This document shows positions 1,246 through 13,830 of a DNA stretch of 13,830 nt, in pieces. Numbering within the stretch: the stretch's first letter is position 1; the number at the start of each line of letters is the position of its first letter. The notes under the pieces are model-generated. The model did not search any database. It was given only the letters and a program-made list of their open reading frames with translations, and was not told where the DNA came from. The translations under genes were made by a program, and so were the position numbers. The DNA comes from Paracoccaceae bacterium (GTDB taxonomy: Bacteria > Pseudomonadota > Alphaproteobacteria > Rhodobacterales > Rhodobacteraceae): contig PWWF01000371.1 in assembly GCA_003561595.1 (NCBI GenBank), forward strand, positions 1-13,830, read 5' to 3'.

Positions 1246-2162
1246 CAGCTCTTCTCCTCGGGTGAGGTGATGTCGCGCAGGCCGTCCCCCATCAGGTTCG
1301 CCCCGATGACAAGGATGAACAGCAATATCCCCGGCAACACGACCAGCCATGGGCGGAAGAACATGGCGTCCTTGCCCTCGGCGATCATCAGACCCCAGCT
1401 CGGGATCGGTGCCTGAATGCCGACGCCCAGAAAGCTGAGCGCGGATTCCGCCAGGATCGCGACGCCGACCTCGAAGGTGAAGATCACGATGATCTTGGAG
1501 CTGAGGTTCGGCAGAATCTCGTGCCAGATGATCTGGCGCGGCGTGGCGCCCGAGGCGCGGGCCGCCGCGACATAATCCAGCCCCTTGATATGCTGGGTCG
1601 CGGACCTTGTGACGACCATGAAATAGGTCCAGCCCAGCACACCGATAATGCCGATGACCACGAACAGCGACGGGCCGATGAAGAACACAAGCGCCATGGC
1701 CAGCAACAGCCCCGGCAGCGCCAGTTGCGCGGTCAGCACGAAGCTGGCGGCATGGTCGATCCAGCCACCGAAATACCCCGCCAGAACCCCCAGCGTCACC
1801 CCGATGATCAGCCCGACCGTCGCCGCCCCCAGACCAATGGTGATCGATACACGGGTGCCATGGATCAGACGGCTGAGATAATCGCGCCCGACCTGATCGG
1901 TGCCCAGCAGATAGGTCCAGTTGCCCCCTTCGACCCAGACGGGTGGCAACAGGCGGTTGGACAGCGATTGCTGGAACGGATCATGCGGGGCCAGAAACGG
2001 GGCAAAGATCGCCACCAGGATCAGCATGACAAGGATGCCTGCGCCCACCTGAAAGCCCCGATGTGTCCATGCGCGGGCGCGGGCCAGTTGGCCGGGGCTT
2101 GGCGGCAGGTCCTGTGCCGCGCTCTCGGTGGCGGGGGGCGTTCTTTGTGTCGTCTCGCTCAT
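1245..2162 (-). CDS. DppC-type peptide ABC transporter permease
   Basis: Inner-membrane permease subunit of a dipeptide/oligopeptide/nickel-type ABC importer, 305 residues, which is normal for DppC/OppC. It has the long hydrophilic cytoplasmic N-terminus typical of the C-type subunit (about residues 1-37), a first membrane segment at about 38-58, and the family marker LGTDQVGRDYLSRLIHGTR (86-104). Several more hydrophobic segments follow, as does the EAA loop that docks the ATPase (about 197-219, with AARASG and HEILPN). The start at 2162 overlaps the upstream permease stop as ATGA. A GAGGA ribosome site lies about 10 bases upstream. The stop overlaps the ATPase start by one base, so the three genes are probably translationally coupled. 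Nothing appears missing. The substrate cannot be read from a permease sequence. Confidence 0.95.
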   Translation of the reverse strand: MSETTQRTPPATESAAQDLPPSPGQLARARAWTHRGFQVGAGILVMLILVAIFAPFLAPHDPFQQSLSNRLLPPVWVEGGNWTYLLGTDQVGRDYLSRLIHGTRVSITIGLGAATVGLIIGVTLGVLAGYFGGWIDHAASFVLTAQLALPGLLLAMALVFFIGPSLFVVIGIIGVLGWTYFMVVTRSATQHIKGLDYVAAARASGATPRQIIWHEILPNLSSKIIVIFTFEVGVAILAESALSFLGVGIQAPIPSWGLMIAEGKDAMFFRPWLVVLPGILLFILVIGANLMGDGLRDITSPEEKS

Positions 2163-3076
2163 CCGATCCGTATCCTCGGGTCAAGCGCTGCGTTCAGGAT
2201 ATCGGCCAGCAGATTCATGGCCACAAAGACCAGCGCGAAAATGAAGATCAGTATCTGCACTGTGGGGATATCGGCGCCGAGAATGGATTGCAGCGCCAGC
2301 CGTCCCAGCCCGTTGATGGCAAAGACGCTTTCGGTAATGACGGAGCCGCCGACCTTGTGGCCAAGCTGCACCGCCAGCACCGACACCACGGGCAGAAGCG
2401 CATTGCGCAGCGCGTGGCGGGTCAGCAGCGACTGGCCACGGAACCCCTTGGACCGCGCCGTGCGGATATAGTCCGAGCCCATCACCTCGATCAGCCCGGT
2501 CCGCATGAGCCGCATCACCGGGGGCACCGATGATGCCCCCAGCACGAAAGCGGGCAGCACGAAATGGCGCCATGTCTGATCGCCCGAGACAGGAAAGATC
2601 GGAAAGATCACGGCCAGCAGGATGATCAGGATCAGCCCCAGCCAGAAATTCGGAATTGCCTGCGCCGAGACGGCAACCCACAGCGCGAAGCGGTCGATCC
2701 AGGTGTTGCGGTTCAGCGCCGCCAGTGCGCCCAGCGGGATGGCGATGGCGATGGTCACGAAGAGCGCCGAGAACGCCAGCGTCAGGGTCGTGCCGACGCG
2801 TTCCGCGACCAGGCTCGCGACGGGTCGGTTCCAGTAATAGCTGACGCCGAAATCACCGCGCAGCACGCCCAGTAGCCAGTCGCCATAGCGCACCCAGACC
2901 GGACGATCGAGGCCGAAGCGCTGGCGGATCTGTTCCACCACCTCGGGATCGGCATCTTCGCCCGCGATGGCATAGGCCGGATCGGTCGCGATATTCAGCA
3001 GGACAAAGGCCGCAAGCGACACGGTGATTGCCACGGCGATGGCCAGTGCGGCGCGTTGTGCGATGTAGTTCAGCAT
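2159..3076 (-). CDS. DppB-type peptide ABC transporter permease
   Basis: Partner inner-membrane permease of the same importer, 305 residues. It begins with the short cytoplasmic N-terminus and immediate membrane segment (about 8-30) of B-type subunits. The periplasmic loop carries RQRFGLDRPVWVRYGDWLLG (51-70) and the EAA loop lies at about 202-229 (YIRTARSKGF, then HALRNALLP). The conserved ESVFAINGLG (249-258) and the terminal LDPRIRIG are present. I place the start at the ATG at 3076; a GTG directly before it (3079) is also possible. A GAGGA motif lies 9 bases before the ATG and 6 before the GTG. The 3' end overlaps the DppC start by four bases (ATGA). A 100-base gap with two hairpins separates it from the binding-protein gene, consistent with lower expression than the binding protein (inference). 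Confidence 0.94.
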   Translation of the reverse strand: MLNYIAQRAALAIAVAITVSLAAFVLLNIATDPAYAIAGEDADPEVVEQIRQRFGLDRPVWVRYGDWLLGVLRGDFGVSYYWNRPVASLVAERVGTTLTLAFSALFVTIAIAIPLGALAALNRNTWIDRFALWVAVSAQAIPNFWLGLILIILLAVIFPIFPVSGDQTWRHFVLPAFVLGASSVPPVMRLMRTGLIEVMGSDYIRTARSKGFRGQSLLTRHALRNALLPVVSVLAVQLGHKVGGSVITESVFAINGLGRLALQSILGADIPTVQILIFIFALVFVAMNLLADILNAALDPRIRIG

Positions 3077-3095
3077 CACTCTGGGTCCTCGTCTG

Positions 3096-3115
3096 GCCGC
3101 TGATTGCGCAGCGGC
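3096..3115 (-). promoter_or_regulatory. Perfect 7-bp hairpin just upstream of the DppB ribosome site
   Basis: Arms GCCGCTG (3096-3102) and CAGCGGC (3109-3115) are perfect reverse complements around a 6-base loop. In the minus-strand transcript this is the second of two tandem hairpins between the binding-protein stop and the permease start, and it ends a few bases before the GAGGA ribosome site. No U-run follows. It may stabilise the processed 3' end or tune permease translation; function is inferred. Confidence 0.5.
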
Positions 3116-3122
3116 GCCAAGA

Positions 3123-3150
3123 GGGTCCGGCAGGCCATGCTGCCGGACCC
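3123..3150 (-). promoter_or_regulatory. Perfect 11-bp hairpin downstream of the binding-protein gene
   Basis: Arms GGGTCCGGCAG (3123-3133) and CTGCCGGACCC (3140-3150) pair perfectly around a 6-base loop. In the transcript it sits 26 bases after the binding-protein stop. The base sequence after it is TCTTGGC, not a U-run, so it does not look like a classical intrinsic terminator. An attenuator or 3'-end stabiliser that lets the binding protein be made in excess of the permeases fits its place; similar intergenic structures are known in other importer operons. Confidence 0.6.
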
Positions 3151-3176
3151 CGGGTCATCCGATAGGCCCGCGCTGC

Positions 3177-4709
3177 CTAGCGCCAGCGGGCGTTCTGAAG
3201 CCGCGGCACGCCGTCATTGTCCATCGGAAATTCCAGATCAGAGGTCACCAGATAATTGGCCGAATAGCTGACCAGCGGCACCCAATAGGCTTCTTCCGCG
3301 ATACGGGTGATGGCGTTGCGGTAATATTCTTCGCGCGCATCCTGATCGGCGGTCGCTTCGGCATTCATCACCCATTCGACCACCTCGGCATCGCCCGACA
3401 GATGCCGGTCGCTGGTATCCGAGAAATGGACACGGGCAATCAACGCCGTATCAGCCACACCACTGGACCCCCAGGTGCCGATATAGGCCGGGATTTCCTG
3501 CGATGCCCGCGCCTGGTTCAATGTCTCGAGCTGGACATAGCGCAGATTGATATTGATGCCGATGGCTTCCAGATCGGACATCACCGCTTCGGCCTTGGGC
3601 CGCTCGCGATAGGCCCAGAGATCGAGGTCAAAGCCATCAGGATAGCCTGCCTCGGCCAGCAACTCGCGTCCGCGCTCCGGGTCATACTCATAGCGCATCA
3701 CATCCTGCAGACAGCCGAACTGCACCGGGTGACAGGCCGTATGGATCCCCTCGGACGCACCGCCGCCCATCAGGAATTCGGCGATTTCATCACGGTTGAT
3801 GGCGTGGTTCATGGCGCGGCGCACACGCAGATCGGTCAGCGGGCCATCTTCTTCCACGATCCCGGCTGCATCGAGCACGATGAAGGACACCCGCAGATCA
3901 GGACCGGCCAGATGGTCGATACCCGGACGCATGCCGACATTCTGCGCCACATCCAGCGGAACATTGAACATCCAGTTGATGCCGCCCGCCATGATCTCGG
4001 CCTGCTGCGTGCCCATGTCGGGGATGTTGCGCACCACGACATTTTCAATCTCGGACGGGGTGCCGAAATAGTCGTCAAAGCGTTCCAGCACCAGTTCCAC
4101 ACCCGGGGTAAAGCTGGCGACCCGGTAGGGACCAACGCCCACCAGATCGGTCGCCATGGCGTCGAAATCAGGCTCTTCGCCCTGATGATAGGTGCCATCC
4201 TTGCGCAGCGGCACGCGCTGCGCCATGTCGCGGATGATCAGCGGGTTGATCGCGCGCAGATGGAACCGCACCGAATGATCCCCCGTCACCTCGGCCCGGT
4301 CCAGCCAGCGGCTGATCAGCGACTGGGCATGCGATTCCGAGCCCTCGTCGATGATCCAGTTATAGGTATAGGCCACATCTTCGGCGGTCAGGGGCGTGCC
4401 GTCATGGAACTGCACGTCATCGCGCAATTCGACATCAATCGTCATCTCATCCACGAATTCATAGGACAGCGCCACCGATGGCTCCACCTCCTGCGTTTCG
4501 GGATTCATGGTGAACAGCCGCGCGTCGGTCATCTTGGCAAGGATGATGTATTCGCGCCTTGTGGTATAGAGATAGTCGAGGTTCAGGATTTCGCCCGCCA
4601 TTGCGGCGCGCAGCGTGTCATCCTCTGGTCCGGCGGCTGCGCCGGGGCCAAATGCCAGCCCTGCTGCCAGCAAGGCGGGGCCGAGGGCGTGATGATATCT
4701 TCTAGTCAT
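3177..4709 (-). CDS. Extracellular solute-binding protein, family 5 (peptide-type ABC transporter)
   Basis: Periplasmic binding protein that would deliver substrate to the downstream permease pair, 510 residues, normal for SBP_bac_5. The N-terminus MTRRYHHALG is followed by a hydrophobic segment and a likely signal peptidase I site after AAA (about residue 26). There is no lipobox cysteine, so it should be soluble in the periplasm. The family signature is clear at about 95-119 (LRDDVQFHDGTPLTAEDVAY). The mature body continues to NARWR at the C-terminus without interruption. The start at 4709 was chosen because GGAGGAG lies directly before it and a signal peptide starts there. The frame stays open to 4943, but that extension is not signal-peptide-like and crosses the AT-rich promoter region. 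Family members bind peptides, opines, nickel, glutathione or sugars; the ligand here is unknown. Confidence 0.95.
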   Translation of the reverse strand: MTRRYHHALGPALLAAGLAFGPGAAAGPEDDTLRAAMAGEILNLDYLYTTRREYIILAKMTDARLFTMNPETQEVEPSVALSYEFVDEMTIDVELRDDVQFHDGTPLTAEDVAYTYNWIIDEGSESHAQSLISRWLDRAEVTGDHSVRFHLRAINPLIIRDMAQRVPLRKDGTYHQGEEPDFDAMATDLVGVGPYRVASFTPGVELVLERFDDYFGTPSEIENVVVRNIPDMGTQQAEIMAGGINWMFNVPLDVAQNVGMRPGIDHLAGPDLRVSFIVLDAAGIVEEDGPLTDLRVRRAMNHAINRDEIAEFLMGGGASEGIHTACHPVQFGCLQDVMRYEYDPERGRELLAEAGYPDGFDLDLWAYRERPKAEAVMSDLEAIGININLRYVQLETLNQARASQEIPAYIGTWGSSGVADTALIARVHFSDTSDRHLSGDAEVVEWVMNAEATADQDAREEYYRNAITRIAEEAYWVPLVSYSANYLVTSDLEFPMDNDGVPRLQNARWR

Positions 4710-4805
4710 GGTCTCCTCCCATATTCGTGACGCAAAGGTTACCAAGGAAAGACATCTCGAATAATCACAATAATTGCTCTGACTGTTGATATTTTCGGGA
4801 CGATC
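4710..4805. promoter_or_regulatory. AT-rich divergent promoter region between binding protein and dehydrogenase
   Basis: These 96 bases lie between divergently transcribed genes and are distinctly AT-richer than the flanks, especially 4760-4795. Within it, AATAAT occurs twice in direct repeat 9 bases apart (4760-4765 and 4769-4774). A short odd palindrome, CAATAATTG, spans 4768-4776. For the plus strand, AATAAT at 4760 is a 5/6 match to a -10 box; the only nearby -35-like sequence (TTACCA, 4739-4744) has a short 15-base spacing. The repeats could be an operator for a regulator not encoded in this window. That promoters lie here follows from gene arrangement; the exact boxes are uncertain. Confidence 0.5.
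4713..4720 (-). promoter_or_regulatory. Strong ribosome binding site of the solute-binding protein
   Basis: On the minus strand the bases read GGGAGGAG, then ACC, then the ATG at 4709. This near-perfect anti-16S match with good spacing decides the start of the binding protein and suggests strong translation. Confidence 0.8.
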
Positions 4806-6145
4806 ATGGCGACAGATGCCCCCGCACAGAATAGACGCGGCCCGACGGCACACGATGTTGCCGCCGGGCAGATTGATCTGCGTTCTTTCCGGCAGCGCCG
4901 TACCCATGCCGCGCGGGCCGATCTGATGATGCGCTGGTATCATCTGATCCTGGAAAACGCCGGGGATCTGGCGCAGATCCTGACTGCCGAACAGGCCAAA
5001 CCCCTGTCCGAAGCGCGCGGCGAAGTGGCCTATGGCGCCAGCTTCGTGCGCTGGTTCGCCGAAGAGGCACGGCGCATCAATGGCAAGATCATCCCCTCGC
5101 CCGTGGCCTGCAAGAAGATCTTTGCGATGAAGGAACCGGTGGGCGTGTGCGCGATCATCACACCGTGGAACTTCCCCATCGCGATGATCACGCGCAAGGT
5201 CGCGCCGGGGCTGGCGGCGGCTGCACGATGGTCATCAAACCGTCGGATTTCACGCCCTGTTCGGCAATTGCGCTGGCGGTTCTGGCCGAACGTGCGGGCA
5301 TTCCGGCAGGCGTGCTGAACATCCTGACCGGCAAGCCCGAAGCGATTGGCGCGGAACTGACTGCAAGCCCGGTGGTTCGCAAGCTCAGCTTCACCGGGGC
5401 AACCCGCGTTGGCGCGCTTCTGGCGGAACAATGCGCACCGACCCTCAAGCGCCTCAGCCTGGAACTGGGCGGCACCGCGCCTTTCGTGGTCTTTGACGAT
5501 GCCGATCTTGATGCCACGGTCGAAGGCGCGATGCAGTCGAAATTCCGCAATGGTGGGCAAACCTGCGTCTGTGCCAACCGGATCATGGTGCAATCGGGCA
5601 TCCATGACGCCTTTGTCGCCGCACTGGCCGCGCGGGTCGATGCATTGCAGGTGGGTGCCGGGACGGGGCAGGGGGTCGATATCGGCCCGATGATCAATAC
5701 CGCCACCAACGACAAGGTCAGCGCACATGTCGCCGATGCACTGGCGCAGGGCGCGACCCGTGAAACCCGCACGCGCGATCTGGCCGCGCATTATGCCGAC
5801 CCGGTGGTGCTGTCGGGCGCGACAACCGCCATGCGGCTCGCATCCGAGGAAACCTTTGGCCCGGTCGCGCCGATCTTCCGCTTCGACACCGAGGCCGAGG
5901 CGCTGGCGCTGGCCAATGGCACGCCCTTCGGCCTTGCTGCCTATTTCTATACCGCCGACATTGCCCGCGCCTTCCGCTTCAGCGAGGGGCTGGGATTCGG
6001 GATGGTCGGGCTGAATACCGGCATTCTCAGCAACGAAGTGGCGCCCTTTGGCGGCGTCAAGGTATCGGGGCTGGGGCGCGAAGGCGCGCAGGAAGGGATC
6101 GAGGAATACCTGGAGACCAAGGCGCTGCATTTCGGCGGGCTGTGA
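4806..6145 (+). pseudogene. Succinate-semialdehyde dehydrogenase-like aldehyde dehydrogenase, frameshifted and N-terminally short
   Basis: An NAD(P)-dependent aldehyde dehydrogenase of the GabD type, which would oxidise succinic semialdehyde or a similar omega-aldehyde to the acid. The first frame (4806-5219, 138 residues) holds [15 protein letters not shown] (110-124) and ends at LAA. The match then resumes in another frame at 5222 with [12 protein letters not shown]. It carries LSFTGATRVG, LELGG, the catalytic-Cys motif GQTCVCANR, EETFGPVAP and APFGGVKVSGLGREG to the stop at 6145. Family members read LAAGCTMV here, so one G is missing at 5220/5221. The repaired protein would have about 446 residues against about 482 in E. 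coli GabD, the shortfall lying at the N-terminus. The ribosome site is weak. It is either a real pseudogene or a sequence error in a G-rich stretch. SSADH specificity is by resemblance only. Confidence 0.85.
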
Positions 6146-6151
6146 CGCAGT

Positions 6152-6176
6152 GGCTGGTGGGCGCCGCTCACCAGCC
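6152..6176. terminator. Shared hairpin between convergent genes
   Basis: GGCTGGTG (6152-6159) and CACCAGCC (6169-6176) are perfect 8-base reverse complements around a GC-rich 9-base loop. It lies between the stop of the plus-strand dehydrogenase (6145) and the 3' end of the minus-strand PLP enzyme, whose last codons form one arm. The convergent position suggests a bidirectional terminator, but neither side has a U-run, so it would be weak or factor-assisted. Confidence 0.5.
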
Positions 6177-7286
6177 GCCAAAACGCGGCCAGGTCTGCAG
6201 CGCACCGCCCGCTGCGGGCAGCACATGATAGCGGCCATGCTGCGCGGCAGTGGCGCAGGCATGGTTGGGCAGGATGCGCAACTGCGTTCCCACTGGCAGA
6301 TCGGGCGCGGTGCCGCCCGTGCCGGGGCGCAGGGCGATGATGCCATGTTCCTGATTGGCGCTGCTCACGATCAGATCGGGCAGGGGGCGGCCCGCCGCAT
6401 CACAGACCAGACCATACCCCTGATCCACAGCCTGAGCGGCGGTGCCCCGATCACGCGACATCGCCATCCAGCCTGCATCGACCAATGTCCAGCCGCGCGC
6501 GGGCTGGTGGCCGATCACCGTGGTCAGCACCGACAGCGCTATGTCATCCACATCGCAGACGCCGATCCCGGCCATGACCAGATCGAAGAACATGTAGACC
6601 CCGGCGCGCAGCTCGGTCACGCCGGACAGATCACGCGCGGCATGTGCCGTGGGGGTGGACCCCACGCTGACCACATCGCAGGGCAATCCGGCGGCGCGCA
6701 AGGTCTCGGCCGCCGCAACAGCCGCCGCGCGTTCGCGTTCGGCGAACTCGGCATGGGCGTCACGCCCGCTGACATTGTAGCTTTCGCCCGCATGAGTCAT
6801 CACCCCGCGCAGCACCCCCGCCTGATGCAGGATGCCCCCGATCGCAGTCAGCGCCGCATCATCGGGCGCGACTCCGCCGCGATGTCCGTCGCTGTCAATC
6901 TCGATCAGGGCGGGCACGCCCGCGCGCGCTACGGCATCGGCCTGCACGGCATTGTCCAGGATCACGGTCAGATCGCAGCCGCGCGCGCGCAATGCGGCCA
7001 CACGCTTCAGCTTGTTCGGCGCGATACCCACGGCATAGAGGATGTCGGCATAGCCCGCGTCGAAAAACACCTCTGCCTCGGCCAGCGTGGACACGGTGAC
7101 CGGCCCCGGCACCCCGCCCGAAAGCCGCTGCGCAACCTCTGCCGATTTCGCGGTCTTCAGATGCGGGCGCAGGGAGACGTTCAGGGCCTGCGCATGCGCT
7201 GACAGGCGGTGGATATTGCGCAGCATGCGCGCCTCATCCAGAACAAGCGACGGGGTTGGCAGGGCGGCAAGATCAGGCGGCGGCAT
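6168..7286 (-). CDS. D-threonine aldolase / D-serine dehydratase-family PLP enzyme (alanine racemase-type fold)
   Basis: A fold-type III PLP enzyme of 372 residues. Relatives cleave D-threonine or D-3-hydroxyaspartate to an aldehyde plus glycine, or dehydrate D-serine or D-threo-3-hydroxyaspartate. The N-terminal barrel has the PLP lysine in RPHLKTAKS (Lys44), then IEIDSDGHRGGV (128-139), GSTPT (209-213) and ELRAGVYMFFD (225-235). The C-terminal domain has DAGWMAMSRDRG (270-281), SSANQEHG (308-315) and the metal-site signature LPNHACATAAQHGRYHV with His342 and Cys344. Relatives I recall usually read KTHK or KMHK where this has KTAK. It follows the dgcN-like gene after 177 bases on the same strand, so it may be co-transcribed or have its own promoter. 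Its role with D-amino acids fits the dgc context, but aldolase versus dehydratase cannot be decided here. Confidence 0.9.
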   Translation of the reverse strand: MPPPDLAALPTPSLVLDEARMLRNIHRLSAHAQALNVSLRPHLKTAKSAEVAQRLSGGVPGPVTVSTLAEAEVFFDAGYADILYAVGIAPNKLKRVAALRARGCDLTVILDNAVQADAVARAGVPALIEIDSDGHRGGVAPDDAALTAIGGILHQAGVLRGVMTHAGESYNVSGRDAHAEFAERERAAAVAAAETLRAAGLPCDVVSVGSTPTAHAARDLSGVTELRAGVYMFFDLVMAGIGVCDVDDIALSVLTTVIGHQPARGWTLVDAGWMAMSRDRGTAAQAVDQGYGLVCDAAGRPLPDLIVSSANQEHGIIALRPGTGGTAPDLPVGTQLRILPNHACATAAQHGRYHVLPAAGGALQTWPRFGGW

Positions 7287-7319
7287 TCGTGTTCTCTGAA
7301 TTTTGCTGGTGTTTCACGC

Positions 7320-7348
7320 AGCATAGGGCATTTGCGGGTGGGTATCCA
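7320..7348 (-). promoter_or_regulatory. Tentative sigma-70-like promoter for the PLP enzyme gene
   Basis: In the 177-base gap (7287-7463) the minus strand reads TGGATA (7348-7343), 17 bases, then TATGCT (7325-7320), each a 4/6 match to the -35 and -10 consensus. A start about 7 bases downstream would give a leader of about 25-30 bases with AGAGAA before the ATG at 7286. The rest of the gap shows one weak inverted repeat (CGATCC 7401-7406, GGATCG 7420-7425) and no convincing coding region. Matches this weak are common by chance. Confidence 0.25.
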
Positions 7349-7463
7349 CGCGACAGGGCTGGTTCTCTCCTGGCACCGAGTTGACCACCCGCCAGAACAA
7401 CGATCCCCGGATGCGTGCCGGATCGCGAGATCGTGCAGTCACGAAGGTAAGCCGCAGGCCCGG

Positions 7464-8498
7464 CTAGGCGGTGACGGCCCTTGCGAGCTTCTCGGCACCG
7501 TATCGGACCGGATCGGTGGCGGGCAGGCCGGTGTCATCCTCGACCGCCTTCACCGCTGCCTCAGCCTCTGCTGCGGACAGGCGCGCCGTGTTCAGGGCGA
7601 TGGCCACGACAGGCGCAGGCGTCAATGCACCTGCCGCGCGGGCCATGGCCTCGTTCAAGGCAATCACCTCGCGCAGCGGGGGGATGCGCACTTGCTCCAG
7701 CTCGTCCAGCGTCTGCATTCCGGCACGGTGGCACAGGATCAGATGCGTCGCGCAACTGCCGCGCATCAGGGGCAGGGTTGCCGTGCTGCCCGGGTGCAGG
7801 AGCGAGCCTTGCCCCTCGATCACCACGATCTCATGCGCGGCGGCCTCAAGCACCATGCGCTCGACAGCGCCGCCCGCATGGTCCACGCGGATCGCATCCA
7901 GCGGGATGCCACGTCCGGTGATGGCAATGCCAGTCTGGCCAGTGGCAAGGAACTCGGCATCGCGGCCCAACTCGCGCAGGCTGCGGGTCAGTTCCAGTCC
8001 GGCGGTCATCTTGCCAATGGCCATATCCGTGCCGACCATCAGCACGCGCCGGTTGTTCAGGTTCGCCGCGCGGGCCATCGCAATGGGCGGCGCATCGCCC
8101 TGCGGCACGCGCAGGTCCCAGACCCATTGGCCTGCGCGCAACCGATCAGCAAAGCGCGGCTGCAAGCGATCATGCATACCGTTAACCAGCGACATGCCAG
8201 TGTCGATGGCTTGATCCAGCACCGCCACCCATTCCGGGGGCAGACGCCCGCCCGATGGCGCCGTGCCCAGCACCAGCACCTCGGCACCCAAGGCCTGCGC
8301 CTCGGCCAGCGTGGCGACAACGGGCACGTCGCTGGCAATGGGCGTCAGGTCGCGCACGCGTTTTCCGGCCTGTGTGCTGTCGATCACCGCGACAACCGGG
8401 TTGCGGCCATAGCGCAGGATGCCCTCGGCCATCTTGGCGTTGATCTTGCCCATGGTGCCTTCGGTGAACAGCGCGATGGGCTGGGCGGGGTCAAGCAT
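7464..8498 (-). CDS. dgcN: D-glutamate N-acetyltransferase DgcN-like protein (DUF1611)
   Basis: DUF1611 proteins of this type acetylate D-glutamate with acetyl-CoA to N-acetyl-D-glutamate, the first step of the DgcN-DgcA pathway described in marine Proteobacteria and haloarchaea. The protein has 344 residues. The N-terminal Rossmann-like half (MLDPAQPIALFTEGTMGK onward) leads to a P-loop-like motif, VGTDMAIGKMTAG (155-167), characteristic of the family. ATGQTGIAITGRGIPLD (185-201), DHAGGAVE and VIEGQGSLLHP (226-236) follow. I chose the ATG at 8498 because GGAGG lies 8 bases upstream; an ATG at 8513 overlaps that ribosome site. The start overlaps the end of the dgcA-like gene by 8 bases, so the two are coupled, which strongly supports the joint function. 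Specificity is by family and pairing, not tested here. Confidence 0.82.
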   Translation of the reverse strand: MLDPAQPIALFTEGTMGKINAKMAEGILRYGRNPVVAVIDSTQAGKRVRDLTPIASDVPVVATLAEAQALGAEVLVLGTAPSGGRLPPEWVAVLDQAIDTGMSLVNGMHDRLQPRFADRLRAGQWVWDLRVPQGDAPPIAMARAANLNNRRVLMVGTDMAIGKMTAGLELTRSLRELGRDAEFLATGQTGIAITGRGIPLDAIRVDHAGGAVERMVLEAAAHEIVVIEGQGSLLHPGSTATLPLMRGSCATHLILCHRAGMQTLDELEQVRIPPLREVIALNEAMARAAGALTPAPVVAIALNTARLSAAEAEAAVKAVEDDTGLPATDPVRYGAEKLARAVTA

Positions 8499-9522
8499 CG
8501 ATATGGCCTCCATGTCCGGGTCGGTCGGCGGGCAGGGTCACGCCATCTGCAAAGGGCGCACCAGTGGCCGGGTCAGGGTCGAGGTTGAGATGGGAATCGA
8601 GGTCGATATAATCGAACAGCGCCGAGAGCGAGGCCCCGGCAGCAATGGAAACCGCGCTTTCACCCATGCAACCGATCATCGTTTTCAGCCCATGCGCGCG
8701 GGCGGTTGCGACAATGCGCACCGCCTCGGTGATGCCGCCGCATTTCATCAGCTTCAGGTTCACCCCGTCCACGCAATGGGCAAAACCCGGAATATCGCTT
8801 GAAAACCGGCAGGATTCATCGACGAAGATCGGCAGCGGGCGGTCGCGGAACAGATCGGGCAGCTGATGCTCCGCACCCTCGACCAGTGGCTGTTCGACAT
8901 ACTCGACCCCGCGCGCCGCCAGCCAGCCCATCATGTGGCGCGCGTCATTCAGCGACCAGCCGCCATTCGCATCGACGCGCAGGGCGACATCGTGGCCCGC
9001 TGCGGCCTCTTGCACGGCGGAAAACATCGCCTTGTCCGCCTCGATCCCGTCTGTGCTGCCCAGCTTGATCTTGAGCGCTTGTGCCCCGCGCGCCAGCAAC
9101 AAAGGCACGCGGTCGCGCACCACCTCGGGCGGGTTGATCCCCACGGTCAGCGACGACACCACCCCCCGCCGCGCCAGCCCCAGCATCCGGTACAGCGGCA
9201 TACCCGCCTGTTTCGCGCGCAGATCCCACAGCGCCATGTCGAGCGCGGCCAGCGCGCAGGCCCCCACACCGCTTGCATGCGCGCGCGCCCAGATGTCGTG
9301 TATCGCGCCGTCCAGCCCGTCTGCGCAAAACCGCTCCAGCTGCGCGCGGCCCTCTTCCACGCTCGCCGCGCCTTCGCTTGCACTCGGGGCCATTTCGCCC
9401 CAGCCGGTCAGCGCGCCATCCGTGACCGAGACGAACAGGTTTTCACCGCCCAGAATCTCGCCGCGCGAGATCCGCAGCGGAAAGCGCTTTTTCAGATAAA
9501 GCGCATGGAAGCCGACCTTCAT
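8491..9522 (-). CDS. dgcA: N-acetyl-D-glutamate racemase DgcA-like (enolase superfamily, dipeptide epimerase type)
   Basis: A muconate-lactonizing-type enolase superfamily member, 343 residues, resembling L-Ala-D/L-Glu epimerases. Next to DUF1611 it most likely interconverts N-acetyl-D- and N-acetyl-L-glutamate. The N-terminal capping domain (about 1-115) is followed by the barrel with all expected catalytic elements. These are KIK at 151-153 (Lys153 general base), metal ligands Asp184 (RVDANGGWS), Glu210 (EQPL) and Asp235 (VDES), and Lys257 in NLKLMKCGG as the opposing base. GCMGESAVSIAAGA (284-297) matches the epimerase group. The start at 9522 was chosen because it overlaps the upstream stop as ATGA and begins a family-like N-terminus; the frame stays open to 9618 but lies inside the upstream gene. 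True dipeptide epimerase activity remains an alternative, which the peptide importer nearby keeps open. Confidence 0.84.
   Translation of the reverse strand: MKVGFHALYLKKRFPLRISRGEILGGENLFVSVTDGALTGWGEMAPSASEGAASVEEGRAQLERFCADGLDGAIHDIWARAHASGVGACALAALDMALWDLRAKQAGMPLYRMLGLARRGVVSSLTVGINPPEVVRDRVPLLLARGAQALKIKLGSTDGIEADKAMFSAVQEAAAGHDVALRVDANGGWSLNDARHMMGWLAARGVEYVEQPLVEGAEHQLPDLFRDRPLPIFVDESCRFSSDIPGFAHCVDGVNLKLMKCGGITEAVRIVATARAHGLKTMIGCMGESAVSIAAGASLSALFDYIDLDSHLNLDPDPATGAPFADGVTLPADRPGHGGHIDA
8507..8511 (-). promoter_or_regulatory. Ribosome binding site deciding the dgcN-like start
   Basis: The minus strand reads GGAGG, then 8 bases, then the ATG at 8498. It lies inside the last codons of the dgcA-like gene and overlaps the alternative upstream ATG at 8513, making the downstream start the better choice. 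Confidence 0.65.
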
Positions 9523-10535
9523 GAGACCCCACCCAGAAAAGCTGTCAGATTGTCTGCCAGTGCGTCGCTGACATAGCCGCCTTCCTGCACCAGCACCAGT
9601 GGCAGGCCAAGCCCGCAAATCGCCCGCGCGATCCGCCCGAACCCCTCGGTCGTGACCGCCAGCCCCTTGAACGGGTCATCGATATGCGCATCCAGCCCCA
9701 GCGCCACGACCACGGCATCCGCGCCAAAGGCATCGATCCGCGCAAGCGCAGTATCGAGGGCCGTCAGATAGCCCGCATCATCGGTGCCACGCGGCAGCGG
9801 CAGGTTGAGGTTGCAGCCCATCCCGCGCCCCTCACCCCGTTCCTGCGCCGCCCCCCAGAAGAACGGATAGAAGCGGTCGGGGTCAGCATGGAGCGAGACA
9901 GTCAGCACATCGTCGCGGGCATAAAATATGCCCTGCGTGCCATTGCCGTGATGCACATCGACATCAAGGATCGCAGGCCGCAGCCCCTTTGCGCGCAGGC
10001 GTTCGGCGGCGATGGCCGAATTGTTCAGAAAGCAGAACCCCCCCGCCAGATCGGCAAAGGCATGATGGCCCGGCGGGCGCGAGAGCACATAGACCGCCCG
10101 CTCGCCCCCCGCCACCAGATCAGCCCCGGTGATCGCGGATTGCGCAGACCAATAGGCCGCGTCCCATGTCTGCGCCCCGATGGGGCAGGCCGTGTCGGCC
10201 TGATGATAGCCTGCCTGCCCGATGGCGGATTTCGGGTAATTGTCGGTCCGTGCCGTCGGGTGAATATTGGGGATCACCTCGGGGCCCGCATCGGGGATGC
10301 GCTGCCAGCGCGGATAGATCGTGCGCAGGAAGTGCAGATATTCGGCACTGTGGATCGCCGCAATCGGGCCAAGACCGGCATCCTCGGGCGACTGGAACTG
10401 ACAGCCCGCTGCCTGCGCGCCTGCCATCAGCCGGGTGATACGCTCGGGCGCTTCGGGGCTGGGATATGTCTTGCCATTGGCCATGAAATGCTGCGGGTCA
10501 TGCAGGCGCTGGCGATCGTCGAATACGGCTTTCAT
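9519..10535 (-). CDS. Acetylpolyamine amidohydrolase / HDAC-family zinc deacetylase
   Basis: A zinc amidohydrolase of the histone deacetylase superfamily, 338 residues, very close in length and layout to the Mycoplana acetylpolyamine amidohydrolase (341). It removes acetyl groups from amines such as N-acetylputrescine, N-acetylcadaverine or acetylspermidine. All active-site elements are visible: RPPGHHA (His157, His158), DVDVHHGNGTQ (zinc ligands Asp193, His195), SLHADPDRFYPFF (214-226), ALGLDAHIDDP (Asp282 as third zinc ligand) and QEGGY (Tyr321). The start at 10535 overlaps the GNAT stop (ATGA), with AGAGGG upstream; its own stop overlaps the racemase start (ATGA). The tight coupling to DgcA/DgcN raises the possibility of an unusual acetylated substrate, though the family normally takes elongated acyl-lysine or acetylpolyamine chains. 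Confidence 0.9.
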   Translation of the reverse strand: MKAVFDDRQRLHDPQHFMANGKTYPSPEAPERITRLMAGAQAAGCQFQSPEDAGLGPIAAIHSAEYLHFLRTIYPRWQRIPDAGPEVIPNIHPTARTDNYPKSAIGQAGYHQADTACPIGAQTWDAAYWSAQSAITGADLVAGGERAVYVLSRPPGHHAFADLAGGFCFLNNSAIAAERLRAKGLRPAILDVDVHHGNGTQGIFYARDDVLTVSLHADPDRFYPFFWGAAQERGEGRGMGCNLNLPLPRGTDDAGYLTALDTALARIDAFGADAVVVALGLDAHIDDPFKGLAVTTEGFGRIARAICGLGLPLVLVQEGGYVSDALADNLTAFLGGVS

Positions 10536-11026
10536 TCGGCCCTCTTGATCAGTGTGGCGAAACCCGCCGCGCCAAGGCGCAATTCCTGTTGTTCATTCGC
10601 CGGGACAAAGCCCAGCCGGGTGTAGAAGCGCAGTGCATCATGGCTGTGGTGATAGGCCGCAAGGCGCAGCCACGCTGCCCCCCAACGCGCCGCGCCGTCG
10701 TGCGCGATCTGCGCGAGCAACCGCGCGCCAAGCCCCTGCCCGCGCGCATCGGAACTTACCCAGAGGTCAGAGACATAGACCCCCGCCGCCCCGCGCACGG
10801 TCGAGAAATTGGGGCTGTAAAGCGCTGCGCCCAGCGTTTCGTCACCGCACAAAGCCAGCAGACCAAGCGCCGCAGGTTGCGCGCCCAGGACCGCGCGGGT
10901 GAGCGTGGCTGTGTCGGTGGCGTAATCCTCGGCAATATCAGCGCTGAGCCTGCGCAGCGCCCCGTCCAGCCGCGCCAGATCGCCCGCGTCCTGCGCAAGG
11001 CGAAAGGTGATGGCCGCCTCACGCAT
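10532..11026 (-). CDS. GNAT-family N-acetyltransferase
   Basis: A cytoplasmic acetyl-CoA-dependent acetyltransferase of 164 residues, normal for a single GNAT domain. The acetyl-CoA pyrophosphate loop RGQGLGA is at 95-101, preceded by the beta-4 strand YVSDLWVSSDA (84-94) and followed by helix ARLLAQIAHDGAARWG. Motif B lies in YHHSHDALRFYTRLGFVPA (125-143). The substrate cannot be told from sequence; diamine/polyamine N-acetyltransferases share this layout, and the amidohydrolase that would reverse such a reaction is the next gene. The start at 11026 overlaps the BKACE stop by 8 bases, and its stop overlaps the amidohydrolase start by four, indicating coupled translation. The ribosome site (AGG before TCA-ATG) is weak, as expected for a coupled gene. 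Confidence 0.88.
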   Translation of the reverse strand: MREAAITFRLAQDAGDLARLDGALRRLSADIAEDYATDTATLTRAVLGAQPAALGLLALCGDETLGAALYSPNFSTVRGAAGVYVSDLWVSSDARGQGLGARLLAQIAHDGAARWGAAWLRLAAYHHSHDALRFYTRLGFVPANEQQELRLGAAGFATLIKRAE

Positions 11027-11945
11027 TGACCTGATCCGCCCCTTTCAACCCCAGCGTGGCGCGCGCCTCATCGGGGGTCATCACCACCCGGCCCAGCCGC
11101 TCCACAATCTCGCGGATTTTCACCACCTGCTCGGCATTCGAGCGCGCAAGCGTGCCGCGTGCGATGGTCAGACTGTCCTCCAGCCCGACGCGGACATGCC
11201 CGCCCATCGCCGCCGCCATGGTGATCAGCGGCATCTGAAAGCGCCCCGCCGCCAGCACCGAAAACAGGTAATCGCCCCCGAACAGCTTGTCGGCAATGCG
11301 CAGCATATGGGTCAGGTTCTCCGGGTCCGGCCCCATGCCGCCCAGTACACCGAACACGAACTGGATGAAATAGGGCGGACGGATCAGCCCGCGATCCGCG
11401 AAATGGCGCAGCATATAAAGGTGGCTGAGGTCATAGCATTCGAACTCGAACCGCGCGCCGCGCTCGGTGCCCAAGCGCGTGAGGATGCGGGCAATATCGC
11501 GCGGCGTGTTCTTGAAGACCAGATCATCCGTGTTTTCCAGAAACGGTTTTTCCCAGTCATGCAGCCAGTCACGATCCTTGCCCAGCATGGGGTAGAGCGC
11601 GAAATTCATCGAGCCCATATTCAGCGAGGCCATTTCCGGCGCAAGCGCCAATGGCGCGGCGAGGCGGTCGTCCAGTGTCATCACCGCACTACCGCCAGTC
11701 GAGATATTCAGCACAGCATCCGTATCGCGGGCAAGATCGGGCACGAAGCCGTTGAAATGGTCCAGCGCCGCCGAAGGGCGCCCGGTATCCGGGTCACGCG
11801 CATGCAGATGCAGGATGGACGCGCCCGCCTGCGCTGCCTCAACTCCTGCGCGCGCAATCTCTGGCCCGCTGATCGGCAGATGCGGCGACATGCTCGGCGT
11901 GTGGATGGAGCCTGTCAGCGCACAGGTGATGATGATGCCCGACAT
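11019..11945 (-). CDS. Beta-keto acid cleavage enzyme (BKACE, DUF849)
   Basis: BKACE enzymes condense a beta-keto acid with acetyl-CoA and cleave it to acetoacetate plus a new CoA ester; the founding member is Kce, which acts on 3-keto-5-aminohexanoate in lysine fermentation. This protein has 308 residues, the usual length. The zinc site is visible as HLHARDPDTG (His46, His48) together with the Glu in GGHVRVGLED (Glu256). Other family landmarks are CALTGS (8-13), LNISTGG (79-85), FVFGVLGGMG (197-206) and the C-terminal LGRVVMTPDEAR. The stop of the upstream aminotransferase lies 6 bases before the start, and the stop overlaps the GNAT start by 8 bases. Pairing with an aminotransferase suggests an amino acid or amine is first converted into the keto acid this enzyme cleaves. 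Specificity is unknown across most of the family. Confidence 0.92.
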   Translation of the reverse strand: MSGIIITCALTGSIHTPSMSPHLPISGPEIARAGVEAAQAGASILHLHARDPDTGRPSAALDHFNGFVPDLARDTDAVLNISTGGSAVMTLDDRLAAPLALAPEMASLNMGSMNFALYPMLGKDRDWLHDWEKPFLENTDDLVFKNTPRDIARILTRLGTERGARFEFECYDLSHLYMLRHFADRGLIRPPYFIQFVFGVLGGMGPDPENLTHMLRIADKLFGGDYLFSVLAAGRFQMPLITMAAAMGGHVRVGLEDSLTIARGTLARSNAEQVVKIREIVERLGRVVMTPDEARATLGLKGADQVNA

Positions 11946-11951
11946 CCGCGT

Positions 11952-13295
11952 TCAGACCAGTTCCGACAGCGCCAGATCGCTGACCAGCCGGGTAAGCGCG
12001 GCGTCGAGCGTCTCGGCAATCTCATCCAGATGCGCTTCGGTCACGATAAGAGGCGGGCAGACCATGATATGATCGCCTTCCACCCCATCGCGGGTGCGGC
12101 GCGAATAGACAATCAGCCCCATGTCATAGGCAATATCGACCAGTCGCTGATGGGCATTCATACGGGCGGGCAGGGGGGCGAGGGGCGCGCGATCCGCCAT
12201 CAGTTCAAATGCCATAAGCAACCCCTTGCCACGCACATCACCGATGATTGGGTGCCGCTCTGCCAGCCCCTCCAACCGCTGGCGCAGGGCATGGCCCATG
12301 GCCTCCGCATTCTGCACCAGCCCCAGCCGCGCGATCTCATCCAGCACCGCGCCGCCTGCCGCGCAGGCCAGCGGATTGCCCGCATAGGTAAAGCCATGCT
12401 GAAAACCGCCACTGCCCAGCACCGCCTGCACCAGCGTGTCGCGCGCGGCAATCGCACCCAGCGGCATATATCCGGCGGCAAACCCCTTGGACAGCACCAC
12501 GATATCCGGCGACAGCCCCCAATGTTCCAGCGCCAGAAACCGGCCTGTGCGGCCTGCGCCGGTCATCACCTCGTCCAGGATCAGCAGCACGCCATGACGG
12601 CGGCAAATCTCCTGCACTTGCGCCATGTAGCCTGCAGGCGGCACCAGCGCGCCAGTGGATGCACCGCCCACAGGCTCGACAATAAAGGCCAGCACCGAGT
12701 CCGGGCCCTGCGCAATGATCTCATCTTCCAGCATCGCAGCGTAATGCGCCCCTGTGGCGGGGTCCGCCGGGTCCAGCCCATCAAGATAGGCGCGCGGTGC
12801 GGGAATCTTGGGCATGGGCCGCATCATCGGCGCGAAAGGCTCGGTCAGCGGCGCATAGCCCGTGACGGCCAGCGCGCCCAACGTGCAACCGTGATAACCC
12901 GGACTGCGGCTGATGACCTTCCAGCGCGTCCCCTCGCCAATGGCCAGCGCATGCTGGCGCGCCAGTTTCATGGCCGATTCCACAGCCTCGGACCCGCCCG
13001 AGACGAAGAACACCTTGTTCATGCCCTCAGGGCACAGCGCAGCCGTCTTGGCGGCCAGCCCCTCGGATGCCTCGGTCTCGAAATGCAGCCGGTAGCCGAA
13101 AGTGGATTTCTCCATCTGACGGCGCATCGCATCCAGAACATGCGCGTTGGAATGGCCGATATTGCACACCATCGCGCCGGATGATCCATCCAGATAGCGC
13201 TTGCCATCCACGTCCCACATATACACCCCGCGCGCTTGATCGAGCAGGGGGCGGCGCTGGCCGGTCTGGTAGAAAAGGTGGCTCATCGTCGTCAT
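11952..13295 (-). CDS. Class III PLP-dependent aminotransferase
   Basis: A fold-type I omega-aminotransferase of 447 residues, moving an amino group from an amine, omega-amino acid or beta-amino acid to a keto acid. Visible landmarks are the PLP phosphate site SGGSEAVES (99-107), [11 protein letters not shown] (131-141), the PLP-ring aspartate in [14 protein letters not shown] (Asp241) and the Schiff-base lysine in [15 protein letters not shown] (Lys270). [12 protein letters not shown] (302-313) and [11 protein letters not shown] (355-365) also fit. I chose the ATG at 13295 because it overlaps the upstream ATPase stop as ATGA; another ATG at 13286 would remove three residues. No good ribosome site is seen for either, so translation is probably coupled. 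The place between a polyamine-type ATPase and a BKACE fits an amine or omega-amino acid substrate, but this is inferred. Confidence 0.92.
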
Positions 13296-13830
13296 CCGGG
13301 CAGGGCCGCGCAATCCTGCGGCCGGAGCGTCAGATGCACCTGCGCGCCCACTGGAAAGGGGCTCTCGTCGATCATGTTGATGGCCTGTAACTGCGTGTCA
13401 CCGGAGCGGACGAAATAACGCACGGACTGGCCCTGGTAATCGACCGTTTCCACGCTGGCCGGTGCCGAAAAGGCACCCCCCTCGGGCGGGCTGTCGCGCA
13501 GCAGCAGCTTCTCGGCACGGACTACCAGCTTTGCCGCCCCTTCGCCCGCCAGATGCGGGGCCTTGGCCGTGGGGACGATGACCTTGCCGAATACCGGCAC
13601 CTCCAGCACCGCGCCATCCGCCCCGCGTGACAGGCAGCGCCCGTCAAGGATGTTCGACGCGCCCAGAAACTTTGCCACGAATTCACTGGCAGGGGTGTTA
13701 TAGACCTCTTCGGGGGCGCCAACTTGCTCGACCCGACCGTTGGACATGACCACGATCTGATCGGACATGGCCAGCGCTTCGGACTGGTCATGCGTCACGA
13801 ATACGGTCGCGACCCCGATCCGCTCCTGAA
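13292..13830 (-). CDS. Polyamine-type ABC transporter ATPase (PotA-like), C-terminal part only
   Basis: The 3' part of an importer ATPase; the gene continues past the right edge, so Walker A, the signature and Walker B are not visible. About 179 residues remain. They start inside the domain with [20 protein letters not shown], which contains the H-loop histidine, then [20 protein letters not shown] and the segment [24 protein letters not shown]-like C-terminal regulatory domain ([10 protein letters not shown], then [12 protein letters not shown] and [11 protein letters not shown]) closes the protein. This layout is that of spermidine/putrescine and related spermidine/iron/sulfate-type ATPases; polyamine is the best reading given the amidohydrolase and aminotransferase downstream. 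The stop overlaps the aminotransferase start as ATGA, placing the transporter at the head of the catabolic operon. The partner permeases and binding protein should lie beyond the edge. Confidence 0.85.

What the first reader, a model, noticed from the sequence alone, without database searches (positions are those of the whole stretch)
8491..11026. Coupled acetylation-racemisation-deacetylation cassette: GNAT, HDAC-like deacetylase, DgcA, DgcN
Four consecutive genes overlap by 4 or 8 bases and all concern N-acetyl chemistry: a GNAT, a zinc acetylpolyamine-type deacetylase with all catalytic residues, an N-acetyl-D-glutamate racemase-like enolase and a D-glutamate N-acetyltransferase-like DUF1611 protein. 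The known DgcN-DgcA route stops at N-acetyl-L-glutamate and needs a deacetylase to give L-glutamate. An HDAC-fold enzyme translated directly into the racemase gene could fill that gap, or the whole cassette could act on another acetylated D-amino compound. HDAC-fold enzymes are not known to me for N-acetylglutamate, so this would be new if true.
Basis: partly seen in the sequence, partly recalled or inferred. Interest (0 to 1): 0.7.

Follow-up and report, generated by a model that had tools for sequence, protein, structure and literature searches.

The report
Acetylation-based amino-acid breakdown gene cluster
These four genes are the tail of a larger, recurring but apparently unstudied bacterial gene cluster that probably breaks down an unusual amino acid by adding and later removing an acetyl group, with a relative of histone deacetylases as the metabolic deacetylase.

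Summary
In detail: GNAT, HDAC-fold, enolase and DUF1611 genes overlap by 4, 4 and 8 bp. But they end a longer run: ABC transporter, class III aminotransferase (AT3), BKACE, GNAT, HDAC, enolase, DUF1611. In 248 family genomes, 32 of 36 close BKACE genes lie beside the HDAC, while 7 of 50 HDACs have the enolase. So the HDAC belongs first with BKACE, AT3 and GNAT. The enolase/DUF1611 pair is one of several D-amino-acid modules in the slot behind it; others are a DauA-like dehydrogenase, and M20 plus racemase. The window pair is not the DgcA/DgcN D-glutamate route: it scores far below those models, and a canonical DgcN with a DgcA start and an ArgE lie elsewhere in the genome. The enolase-HDAC link does recur: 7 of 10 enolase genomes. 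In one family an M20 (ArgE/DapE) enzyme fills the HDAC slot; near four loci lies a thioesterase. Best reading: acetyl-protected catabolism of a beta-amino acid, in the logic of Barker's beta-lysine pathway (recalled), with the HDAC as small-molecule deacetylase. The substrate is unproven.

The parts
13292..13798 (-). 3' end of a PotA-like ABC transporter ATPase (gene cut by the window end); first visible gene of the run
   Evidence: TOBE_2 domain and potA-type partial matches; in many relatives it is the last gene of a PotBCDA-like transporter directly before AT3
11952..13286 (-). AT3: class III aminotransferase; proposed transaminase that makes the beta-keto acid
   Evidence: PF00202 E 8.4e-100; upstream of the HDAC together with BKACE in 103 of 139 HDAC loci: 71 of 79 of the best-match list, 22 of the family sample, the rest from class and phylum samples
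11019..11945 (-). [quoted passage not shown] proposed acetyl-CoA-dependent cleavage to acyl-CoA plus acetoacetate
   Evidence: PF05853 E 7.6e-102; NF053538 473.5 bits, cut-off 430; 32 of 36 close family homologues lie within 1.5 kb of the HDAC
10532..11026 (-). GNAT acetyltransferase; proposed acetylation of the distal amine
   Evidence: PF00583 E 8.9e-12; nearest solved chain is a thialysine acetyltransferase, weak (E 2.6e-11); overlaps BKACE by 8 bp and HDAC by 4 bp
9519..10535 (-). HDAC-fold zinc deacetylase; proposed small-molecule (acetamido acid / N-acetyl amino acid) deacetylase
   Evidence: PF00850 E 3.1e-72; nearest solved chain 3men acetylpolyamine aminohydrolase E 1.1e-100; catalytic residues kept, polyamine-pocket residues changed
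8491..9522 (-). ENOL: enolase-superfamily epimerase/racemase, a paralogue distinct from DgcA
   Evidence: MR_MLE_C/N; DgcA model 189 bits against 400; many fixed differences from 12 DgcA proteins with catalytic residues kept
7464..8498 (-). DUF1611 protein, a paralogue distinct from DgcN; proposed N-acetyltransferase partner of ENOL
   Evidence: PF07755 and PF17396; DgcN model 237 bits against 480; nearest solved chain 2obn E 1.6e-82, 7xrj E 7.4e-47; 8-bp overlap with ENOL

Best explanation
The four genes are the downstream half of one catabolic operon. Shown: AT3-BKACE-(GNAT)-HDAC recurs as a unit; the transporter before it and the module after it vary; the window carries ENOL+DUF1611 as that module. 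Inferred mechanism: an imported amino acid with a beta-amino group and a second, distal amine is acetylated on the distal amine by GNAT. AT3 removes the beta-amine to give a beta-keto acid, and the acetyl group would keep this product from cyclising. BKACE plus acetyl-CoA cleaves it to acetoacetate and an acetamido-acyl-CoA. A thioesterase (near the core in some loci) frees the acid, and the HDAC-fold enzyme removes the acetyl group to give an omega-amino acid such as GABA. This is the logic of Barker's beta-lysine pathway in Pseudomonas (recalled, not read). The trailing ENOL+DUF1611 pair would turn an accompanying D-alpha-amino acid into its L form through an N-acyl intermediate, a job that a DauA-like dehydrogenase, or M20 with a racemase, may do in other loci. 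I put about 0.2 on beta-lysine or its N6-acetyl form being the actual substrate.
For: Family survey: 32 of 36 BKACE homologues of at least 64% identity lie within 1.5 kb of the HDAC. AT3 and BKACE are upstream in 103 of 139 HDAC loci and AT3+BKACE+GNAT in 82 of 139; the pool is biased, with 71 of 79 in the best-match list but only 22 of 49 in the fetched family sample. The four-gene core is complete in 5 of 11 plasmid records examined, of 41 found (Phyllobacterium, Shinella x2, Pararhizobium, and one filed as Roseateles), with no D-module marker beside it. A 4HBT thioesterase lies near the core in 4 loci. In 3 genomes of one family an M20 enzyme holds the HDAC slot after AT3-BKACE-GNAT; the 2 scanned with NCBIfam pass the ArgE/DapE model. 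HDAC pocket: MrApaH F27, Y168, F225, E106 and PIS become P, F, Y, mostly V/I and PFx, with invariant H92, H111 and D114. Gene after the HDAC: DauA-like 54, ENOL 21, M20 5, RidA 5, no marker 49, contig end 4, GNAT 1, of 139. One DauA-like protein (L024) matches DauA at 282 bits and keeps E87.
Against: No substrate has been measured. In the family sample most HDACs are not in the full setting: AT3 and BKACE were found upstream in 22 of 49 fetched loci, and no D-module marker follows in 30 of 49. No KamA-family lysine 2,3-aminomutase was found in the window's genome, so beta-lysine would have to be imported. GNAT was not detected in 21 of the 103 loci with AT3 and BKACE. The HDAC also stands away from the core (L101, L106, L109; L068 and L105 with DauA but not the core). 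In G064 ENOL+DUF1611 follows BKACE with neither GNAT nor HDAC, so a related route can apparently run without this deacetylase. Thioesterase matches came from 4 of 184 loci searched. The BKACE model it passes is named for 3,5-dioxohexanoate. The proposed core does not by itself call for a D-amino-acid module. ENOL keeps an arginine (ISRG) that I recall as a contact for an acidic side chain, whereas E87 of DauA hints at a basic one; the two hints disagree.
Confidence: 0.48

Rival explanations
1. One reading: DUF1611 acetylates a D-amino acid, ENOL racemises the N-acetyl form, and the HDAC removes the acetyl group to release the L-amino acid, so the HDAC is the third enzyme of a D-to-L conversion like the GNAT/NSAR/hydrolase pathway of Sakai et al. 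2006 (recalled; only its reference-list entry was seen).
For: 7 of 10 ENOL genomes have the HDAC directly upstream, in the window with a 4-bp ATGA overlap. The link is seen with Pot-type and with branched-chain (Liv) type transporters. An M20 ArgE/DapE-type deacylase can fill the HDAC slot. The pocket is changed from that of polyamine deacetylases. The window pair is a second pair besides DgcN/DgcA, so it may have its own substrate and its own deacetylase.
Against: 43 of 50 close HDACs lie elsewhere, and 3 of 10 ENOL genomes lack an HDAC relative at E <= 1e-60. For N-acetyl-L-glutamate itself the genome has an ArgE over its cut-off. No HDAC lay near a canonical DgcN in the places listed (a cut list); where both were on one contig they were more than 100 kb apart, compared by eye.
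Confidence: 0.2
2. The HDAC is an ordinary acetylpolyamine amidohydrolase; with the Pot-type transporter and an SSAT-like GNAT the locus handles polyamines or acetylpolyamines.
For: The five best solved relatives are named acetylpolyamine amidohydrolases or aminohydrolases. The transporter of the relatives is Pot-like, and the GNAT's weak relatives include diamine acetyltransferases.
Against: Residues that PMC11532494 names as polyamine contacts or motifs are not kept: E106 becomes V or I in 117 of 137 (E in 1), PIS becomes P-F-x in 126, F27 P in 135, Y168 F and F225 Y in all 137. Polyamine breakdown does not need a BKACE as far as I know. The transporter is HisJ-like or branched-chain type in other loci with the same core.
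Confidence: 0.13
3. Independent neighbours: the core and the ENOL+DUF1611 pair are separate pathways that share a promoter and an inducer but no intermediate.
For: The core lacks ENOL in most genomes, and ENOL+DUF1611 occurs without the HDAC in G064, G136 and G090. Most family-sample HDACs have no D-module marker behind them (30 of 49).
Against: Non-homologous D-amino-acid modules recur in the same slot after the HDAC, and overlapping stop/start codons suggest coupled translation.
Confidence: 0.15

Closest known systems
DgcN-DgcA D-glutamate pathway (NF041892, NF042940; EC 2.3.1.312 and 5.1.1.25 as named in a passage of PMC11747546)
   Same: Same two families, adjacent and in one direction; catalytic residues of the enolase kept
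   Different: Both proteins are far below the curated cut-offs. A canonical DgcN is elsewhere in the same genome, and over the cut-off in 188 of 248 family genomes. Many fixed differences between 23 ENOL and 12 DgcA rows, among them M259 against D, E288 against G and H311 against P
Barker's L-beta-lysine degradation in Pseudomonas (recalled from memory; the original papers were not seen)
   Same: Acetyltransferase, transaminase, beta-keto acid cleavage enzyme, deacetylase and, in a few loci, a thioesterase can be assigned to genes of the core or its neighbours
   Different: Substrate untested; no lysine 2,3-aminomutase found in this genome; I know of no HDAC-fold deacetylase assigned to that step; the D-amino-acid module has no place in it
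Bacterial cluster-4 acetylpolyamine deacetylases, MrApaH and PsApaH (PMC11532494: section 16 and passages read)
   Same: Fold, zinc site, RPPGHH and EGGY motifs; 42% and 41% identity to the two reference rows
   Different: E106, F27, Y168, F225 and the PIS motif are changed in most or all of 137 rows
N-succinylamino acid racemase pathway, irreversible D- to L-conversion (Sakai et al. 2006; recalled, only its reference entry seen)
   Same: An acyltransferase, an enolase racemase and a hydrolase together
   Different: Here the acyltransferase partner of the enolase would be DUF1611, and the hydrolase an HDAC-fold enzyme shared with a BKACE pathway

Membership tests
DgcA N-acetyl-D-glutamate racemase (NF042940) | Score over the curated cut-off of 400 bits | tested here: not met
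   189.2 bits
DgcA N-acetyl-D-glutamate racemase (NF042940) | Enolase-superfamily catalytic Lys pair and metal ligands | tested here: met
   KxK, VDAN, VEQP, DES and KLMK positions present in the window ENOL; the reading of the motifs is from recall
DgcN D-glutamate N-acetyltransferase (NF041892) | Score over the curated cut-off of 480 bits | tested here: not met
   237.2 bits; the genome's other copy scores 555.6 and 557.7
DgcN-DgcA pathway | Activity on D-glutamate and N-acetyl-D-glutamate | not testable with these tools
   needs enzyme assays
Acetylpolyamine amidohydrolase (cluster 4) | Hist_deacetyl fold with zinc ligands and catalytic Tyr | tested here: met
Acetylpolyamine amidohydrolase (cluster 4) | PIS motif of characterised bacterial polyamine deacetylases | tested here: not met
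   window has P-F-K; middle position F in 126, L in 10, Y in 1 of 137
Acetylpolyamine amidohydrolase (cluster 4) | Acidic L2-loop residue E106 of MrApaH | tested here: not met
   I105 in the window; V or I in 117 of 137, E in 1; PsApaH has His there and is still active
Acetylpolyamine amidohydrolase (cluster 4) | Deacetylates acetylpolyamines | not testable with these tools
   needs enzyme assays
Barker-type beta-lysine degradation | Genes for acetylation, transamination, beta-keto acid cleavage and deacetylation in one unit | tested here: met
   AT3-BKACE-GNAT-HDAC in one run, gap 6 bp and overlaps of 8 and 4 bp
Barker-type beta-lysine degradation | Source of beta-lysine in the cell (lysine 2,3-aminomutase) | tested here: not met
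   no TIGR00238 match in the draft genome; uptake by the ABC transporter is not excluded
Barker-type beta-lysine degradation | Enzyme activities on N6-acetyl-beta-lysine, 3-keto-6-acetamidohexanoate and 4-acetamidobutyrate | not testable with these tools
   needs enzyme assays
ArgE/DapE (M20) deacylases | M20 fold | tested here: not met
   the window enzyme is HDAC-fold; the resemblance is by slot in the gene order only

The most novel reading that the evidence does not exclude
This is the gene set for the acetylation route of beta-lysine (or N6-acetyl-beta-lysine osmolyte) breakdown, worked out biochemically decades ago and, as far as I recall, never tied to genes, with an HDAC-fold enzyme as the 4-acetamidobutyrate deacetylase. 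In the window's lineage it is joined to a second, non-glutamate DUF1611/enolase pair that inverts a D-amino acid by a private acetylation cycle.
Probability: 0.2. Interest if true: 0.75.

Novelty: new variant of a known kind. Interest (0 to 1): 0.5.

Why it matters
A recurring operon of Alphaproteobacteria, partly carried on plasmids, would gain a testable function, and a histone-deacetylase-fold enzyme would be placed in amino-acid catabolism as a stand-in for ArgE-type deacetylases. It would also show that DUF1611/enolase pairs named after DgcN/DgcA by similarity include a separate group, probably with another substrate, so reading D-glutamate use from such pairs can mislead. If the beta-lysine reading holds, several enzymes known (as I recall) only by activity would get genes.

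Tried and rejected
D-glutamate route with a missing deacetylase: rejected as the main function. Polyamine deacetylation: lowered. BKACE on malonate semialdehyde from beta-alanine: considered, because the related BKACE15 (8RIO) does this, but PMC11961710 calls that substrate non-native (passages). Literature, listings only unless said: of 93 papers found, the 20 listed have no 'acetamidohexanoate'; the 6 papers listed (one with 'acetamidobutyrate deacetylase', the other five with 'beta-lysine N6-acetyltransferase') are by title on other subjects and I opened none; the 6 listed hold neither 'DUF849' nor 'acetylpolyamine'; one search listed one paper with DgcN and DgcA (not opened) and none on DgcN with DUF1611. 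These are limits of that library, not proof of absence. Passages of PMC12421898 concern a carnitine-type BKACE and did not help. Structure prediction of the HDAC with 20 sequences gave mean pLDDT 71.5 and under 50 in loops 56-118 and 155-170, so I made no fold search and no pocket reading from it. Consensus scan of 6000-13830: 1 promoter-like match (shuffles 1.1) and 6 terminator-like matches (shuffles 3.7), not used. The ENOL tree does not settle whether ENOL moved between lineages: ENOL identity to the window is 84-85% in L041 and L093 while the HDAC is 74-75%, but the window clade stays one group.
Full report
What is there. The window is one whole contig, C317, of a 3.3 Mb, 440-contig draft genome. 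The best HDAC relatives are in Roseinatronobacter/Natronohydrobacter-like Rhodobacterales. On the minus strand the genes run: ABC ATPase (cut), AT3 11952-13286, BKACE 11019-11945, GNAT 10532-11026, HDAC 9519-10535, ENOL 8491-9522, DUF1611 7464-8498. Gaps and overlaps are within 10 bp, and the last four genes overlap by 4, 4 and 8 bp. A 177-bp gap then separates a D-threonine-aldolase-like gene, which is not matched in the six relatives tested.

Named families. Pfam gives Aminotran_3, BKACE, GNAT, Hist_deacetyl, MR_MLE and DUF1611. Against NCBIfam the BKACE passes NF053538 (473.5, cut-off 430), while ENOL (189 against 400) and DUF1611 (237 against 480) stay far below the DgcA and DgcN models; the HDAC matches none. 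The same genome holds a DgcN of 555.6 bits on contig C280, beside a DgcA start that runs off the contig end (376 bits over 272 residues, cut-off 400). Canonical DgcN is over the cut-off in 188 of 248 family genomes. In the 12 DgcN loci fetched a DgcA-like gene with 33-37% identity to ENOL lies in the same locus. ENOL-type proteins (23 rows) and 12 DgcA rows differ by many fixed columns, including neighbours of catalytic residues, while the catalytic residues are the same. So the window pair is a paralogous pair, and its substrate need not be D-glutamate.

Neighbourhood of the HDAC. The named-genome scan kept the best 80 of 579 relatives. In these the recurring order is LysR, ABC transporter, AT3, BKACE, GNAT, HDAC, then a varying module; AT3 and BKACE are upstream in 71 of 79. 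A survey less biased to the window, 248 genomes of the family drawn evenly, gave HDAC homologues of at least 59% identity in 50, BKACE of at least 64% in 36 and ENOL in 10. BKACE has the HDAC within 1.5 kb in 32 of 36, and 32 of the 50 HDACs have the BKACE; HDAC has ENOL beside it in 7 of 50; ENOL has HDAC beside it in 7 of 10. A Fisher test on co-occurrence of ENOL and HDAC in genomes gives p 0.0007, which ignores shared descent. In the 49 fetched family-sample loci, an unbroken run with both AT3 and BKACE was recognised in 22, and the gene after the HDAC is DauA-like in 10, ENOL in 6 (the window makes 7 of 50), no marker in 30 and contig end in 3.

Pool and tree. Pooled over 139 loci of at least 59% identity (79 of the best-match list, 48 of the family sample, 12 of class and phylum samples; three rows are identical to others), the gene after the HDAC is DauA-like in 54, ENOL in 21, M20 in 5, RidA in 5, no marker in 49, contig end in 4 and GNAT in 1. 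On an HDAC tree of 137 rows the ENOL label needs 2 changes and the DauA label 10 (quick tree with many weak branches).

D-amino-acid modules. A DauA-like protein (L024) matches the solved D-arginine dehydrogenase at 282 bits and keeps the residue aligned with E87, which I recall as the contact for the basic side chain. A third type, an M20 amidohydrolase plus an alanine-racemase-family protein, sometimes with RidA, is in 7 loci of the best-match list and one plasmid record; RidA without them follows the HDAC in L043, L062 and L073. That these families act on D- or L-amino acids is family knowledge; that they stand in for one another is inferred from their sharing one slot.

Exchange of the deacetylase. 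In other families of the class, six loci (L144-L149) show AT3-BKACE-HDAC-DauA, two of them with GNAT recognised. Three genomes of another family (L150-L152) show AT3-BKACE, a GNAT-like gene and an M20 enzyme, with no HDAC in the locus. The M20 proteins of L150 and L151 pass the ArgE/DapE model with 516 and 522 bits against 376, that of L152 is M20 by Pfam, and the L150 acetyltransferase is a Pfam GNAT. These three may be one event. This is the best hint that the HDAC does the work of an amino-acid deacylase.

Plasmid records. Of 41 plasmid records with the HDAC (E <= 1e-80), I examined 11. Five hold the complete four-gene core and no D-module marker. One has AT3-BKACE-HDAC-M20-racemase. One has AT3-GNAT-HDAC with no BKACE match. 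One has HDAC and BKACE without AT3. Three have the HDAC without AT3, BKACE or GNAT. In L154, L177, L183 and L186 a thioesterase lies near the core, directly behind the HDAC in L154 and behind a LysR gene in the other three; L154, L177 and L183 were checked by Pfam (4HBT), L186 by similarity and its record's name. These are 4 of 184 loci searched. A thioesterase is what an acyl-CoA made by BKACE would need.

HDAC pocket. Aligned with MrApaH and PsApaH (42% and 41% identity to the window), the zinc and catalytic positions are kept in the 137 rows, one gap apart. E17 becomes F in 132, F27 P in 135, E106 V or I in 117 (E in 1), E117 A or S in 137, Y168 F in 137, F225 Y in 137, and PIS becomes P-F-x in 126. 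H92, H111 and D114 are invariant and R96 is kept in 134. PMC11532494 (section 16 read) names E106, F27, Y168 and F225 as polyamine contacts in MrApaH and PIS as a motif of bacterial polyamine deacetylases, but also reports His at 106 in the active PsApaH; that E17 and E117 line the pocket is my recall. The shift from acidic to basic or polar residues fits a substrate with a carboxylate; that is inference, and the predicted model was too weak in these loops to check it.

Mechanism. AT3 plus BKACE implies a beta-amino acid turned into a beta-keto acid and cleaved to acetoacetate and an acyl-CoA. GNAT and a deacetylase imply temporary acetylation of a second amine. This is the scheme I recall for L-beta-lysine in Pseudomonas (Barker's group). 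BKACE acts in other pathways too: passages seen describe a deoxyribonate route (PMC6365646) and malonate semialdehyde as a non-native substrate (PMC11961710). The window genome has no KamA-family match, so a beta-lysine substrate would come from outside. ENOL and DUF1611 would then serve a D-alpha-amino acid taken up or released with it. The genome also has ArgE, so N-acetyl-L-glutamate could be hydrolysed without the HDAC.

Results against. HDACs also stand without the core: L068 and L105 with DauA only; L117 (the same place as plasmid locus L181) with a peptide-type transporter and an ArgE/DapE enzyme; L159, at 56% identity, with a class V aminotransferase and an amidohydrolase of the type I recall as N-acyl-D-amino-acid deacylases. 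ENOL+DUF1611 occurs without the HDAC in G064 (after BKACE), G136 (with a branched-chain-type binding protein and a DAO-family enzyme) and G090. Hints on the ENOL side chain (an Arg shared with DgcA) and on DauA (E87) point to different charges. The substrate therefore remains open, and my score for beta-lysine is low.

Verdict. The D-glutamate reading is not the best one. The finding is a corner of a larger, recurring catabolic operon, uncharacterised as far as my searches show, in which an HDAC-fold enzyme is probably a metabolic deacetylase.

Noticed in passing
window 4806-6145, + strand: A succinate-semialdehyde-dehydrogenase-like gene is split over two reading frames (4806-5318 and 5147-6145), so it is broken or misassembled in this draft.
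   Followed up: no
window 1245-4943 and 6168-7286, - strand: Two permeases and a family 5 binding protein of a peptide-type ABC transporter, and a D-threonine-aldolase/BhcC-like enzyme (98 bits, cut-off 690), follow the operon; the aldolase-like gene is not matched in the six relatives tested. L108 carries a family 5 binding protein and a gamma-glutamyltranspeptidase gene beside HDAC-ENOL-DUF1611.
   Followed up: partly
L154 11064-12704 and L156 3523-5169: A gene with the C-terminal domain of dimethylformamidase beta subunits (PF20254) lies directly before AT3 in two loci of one family.
   Followed up: no
L179 (Azospirillum brasilense plasmid): Order ArgE/DapE, peptide-type transporter, ketopantoate-reductase-like gene, M20 hydrolase, HDAC, TPP enzyme, BKACE: another catabolic setting for the same HDAC family.
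   Followed up: no
L140 10-8809: ENOL+DUF1611 opposite a branched-chain-type binding protein and a DAO-family oxidoreductase in a low-GC (0.40) stretch without the HDAC; the binding protein looks like those of L139, L053, L092 and L095.
   Followed up: partly
L041 (Roseibaca ekhonensis; taxonomy lists the species under Roseinatronobacter): ENOL is 85% identical to the window's while HDAC is 75% and AT3 65%, so the two halves of the operon may have different histories in related organisms; a penicillin-acyltransferase-like (C45/AAT) gene follows DUF1611.
   Followed up: partly
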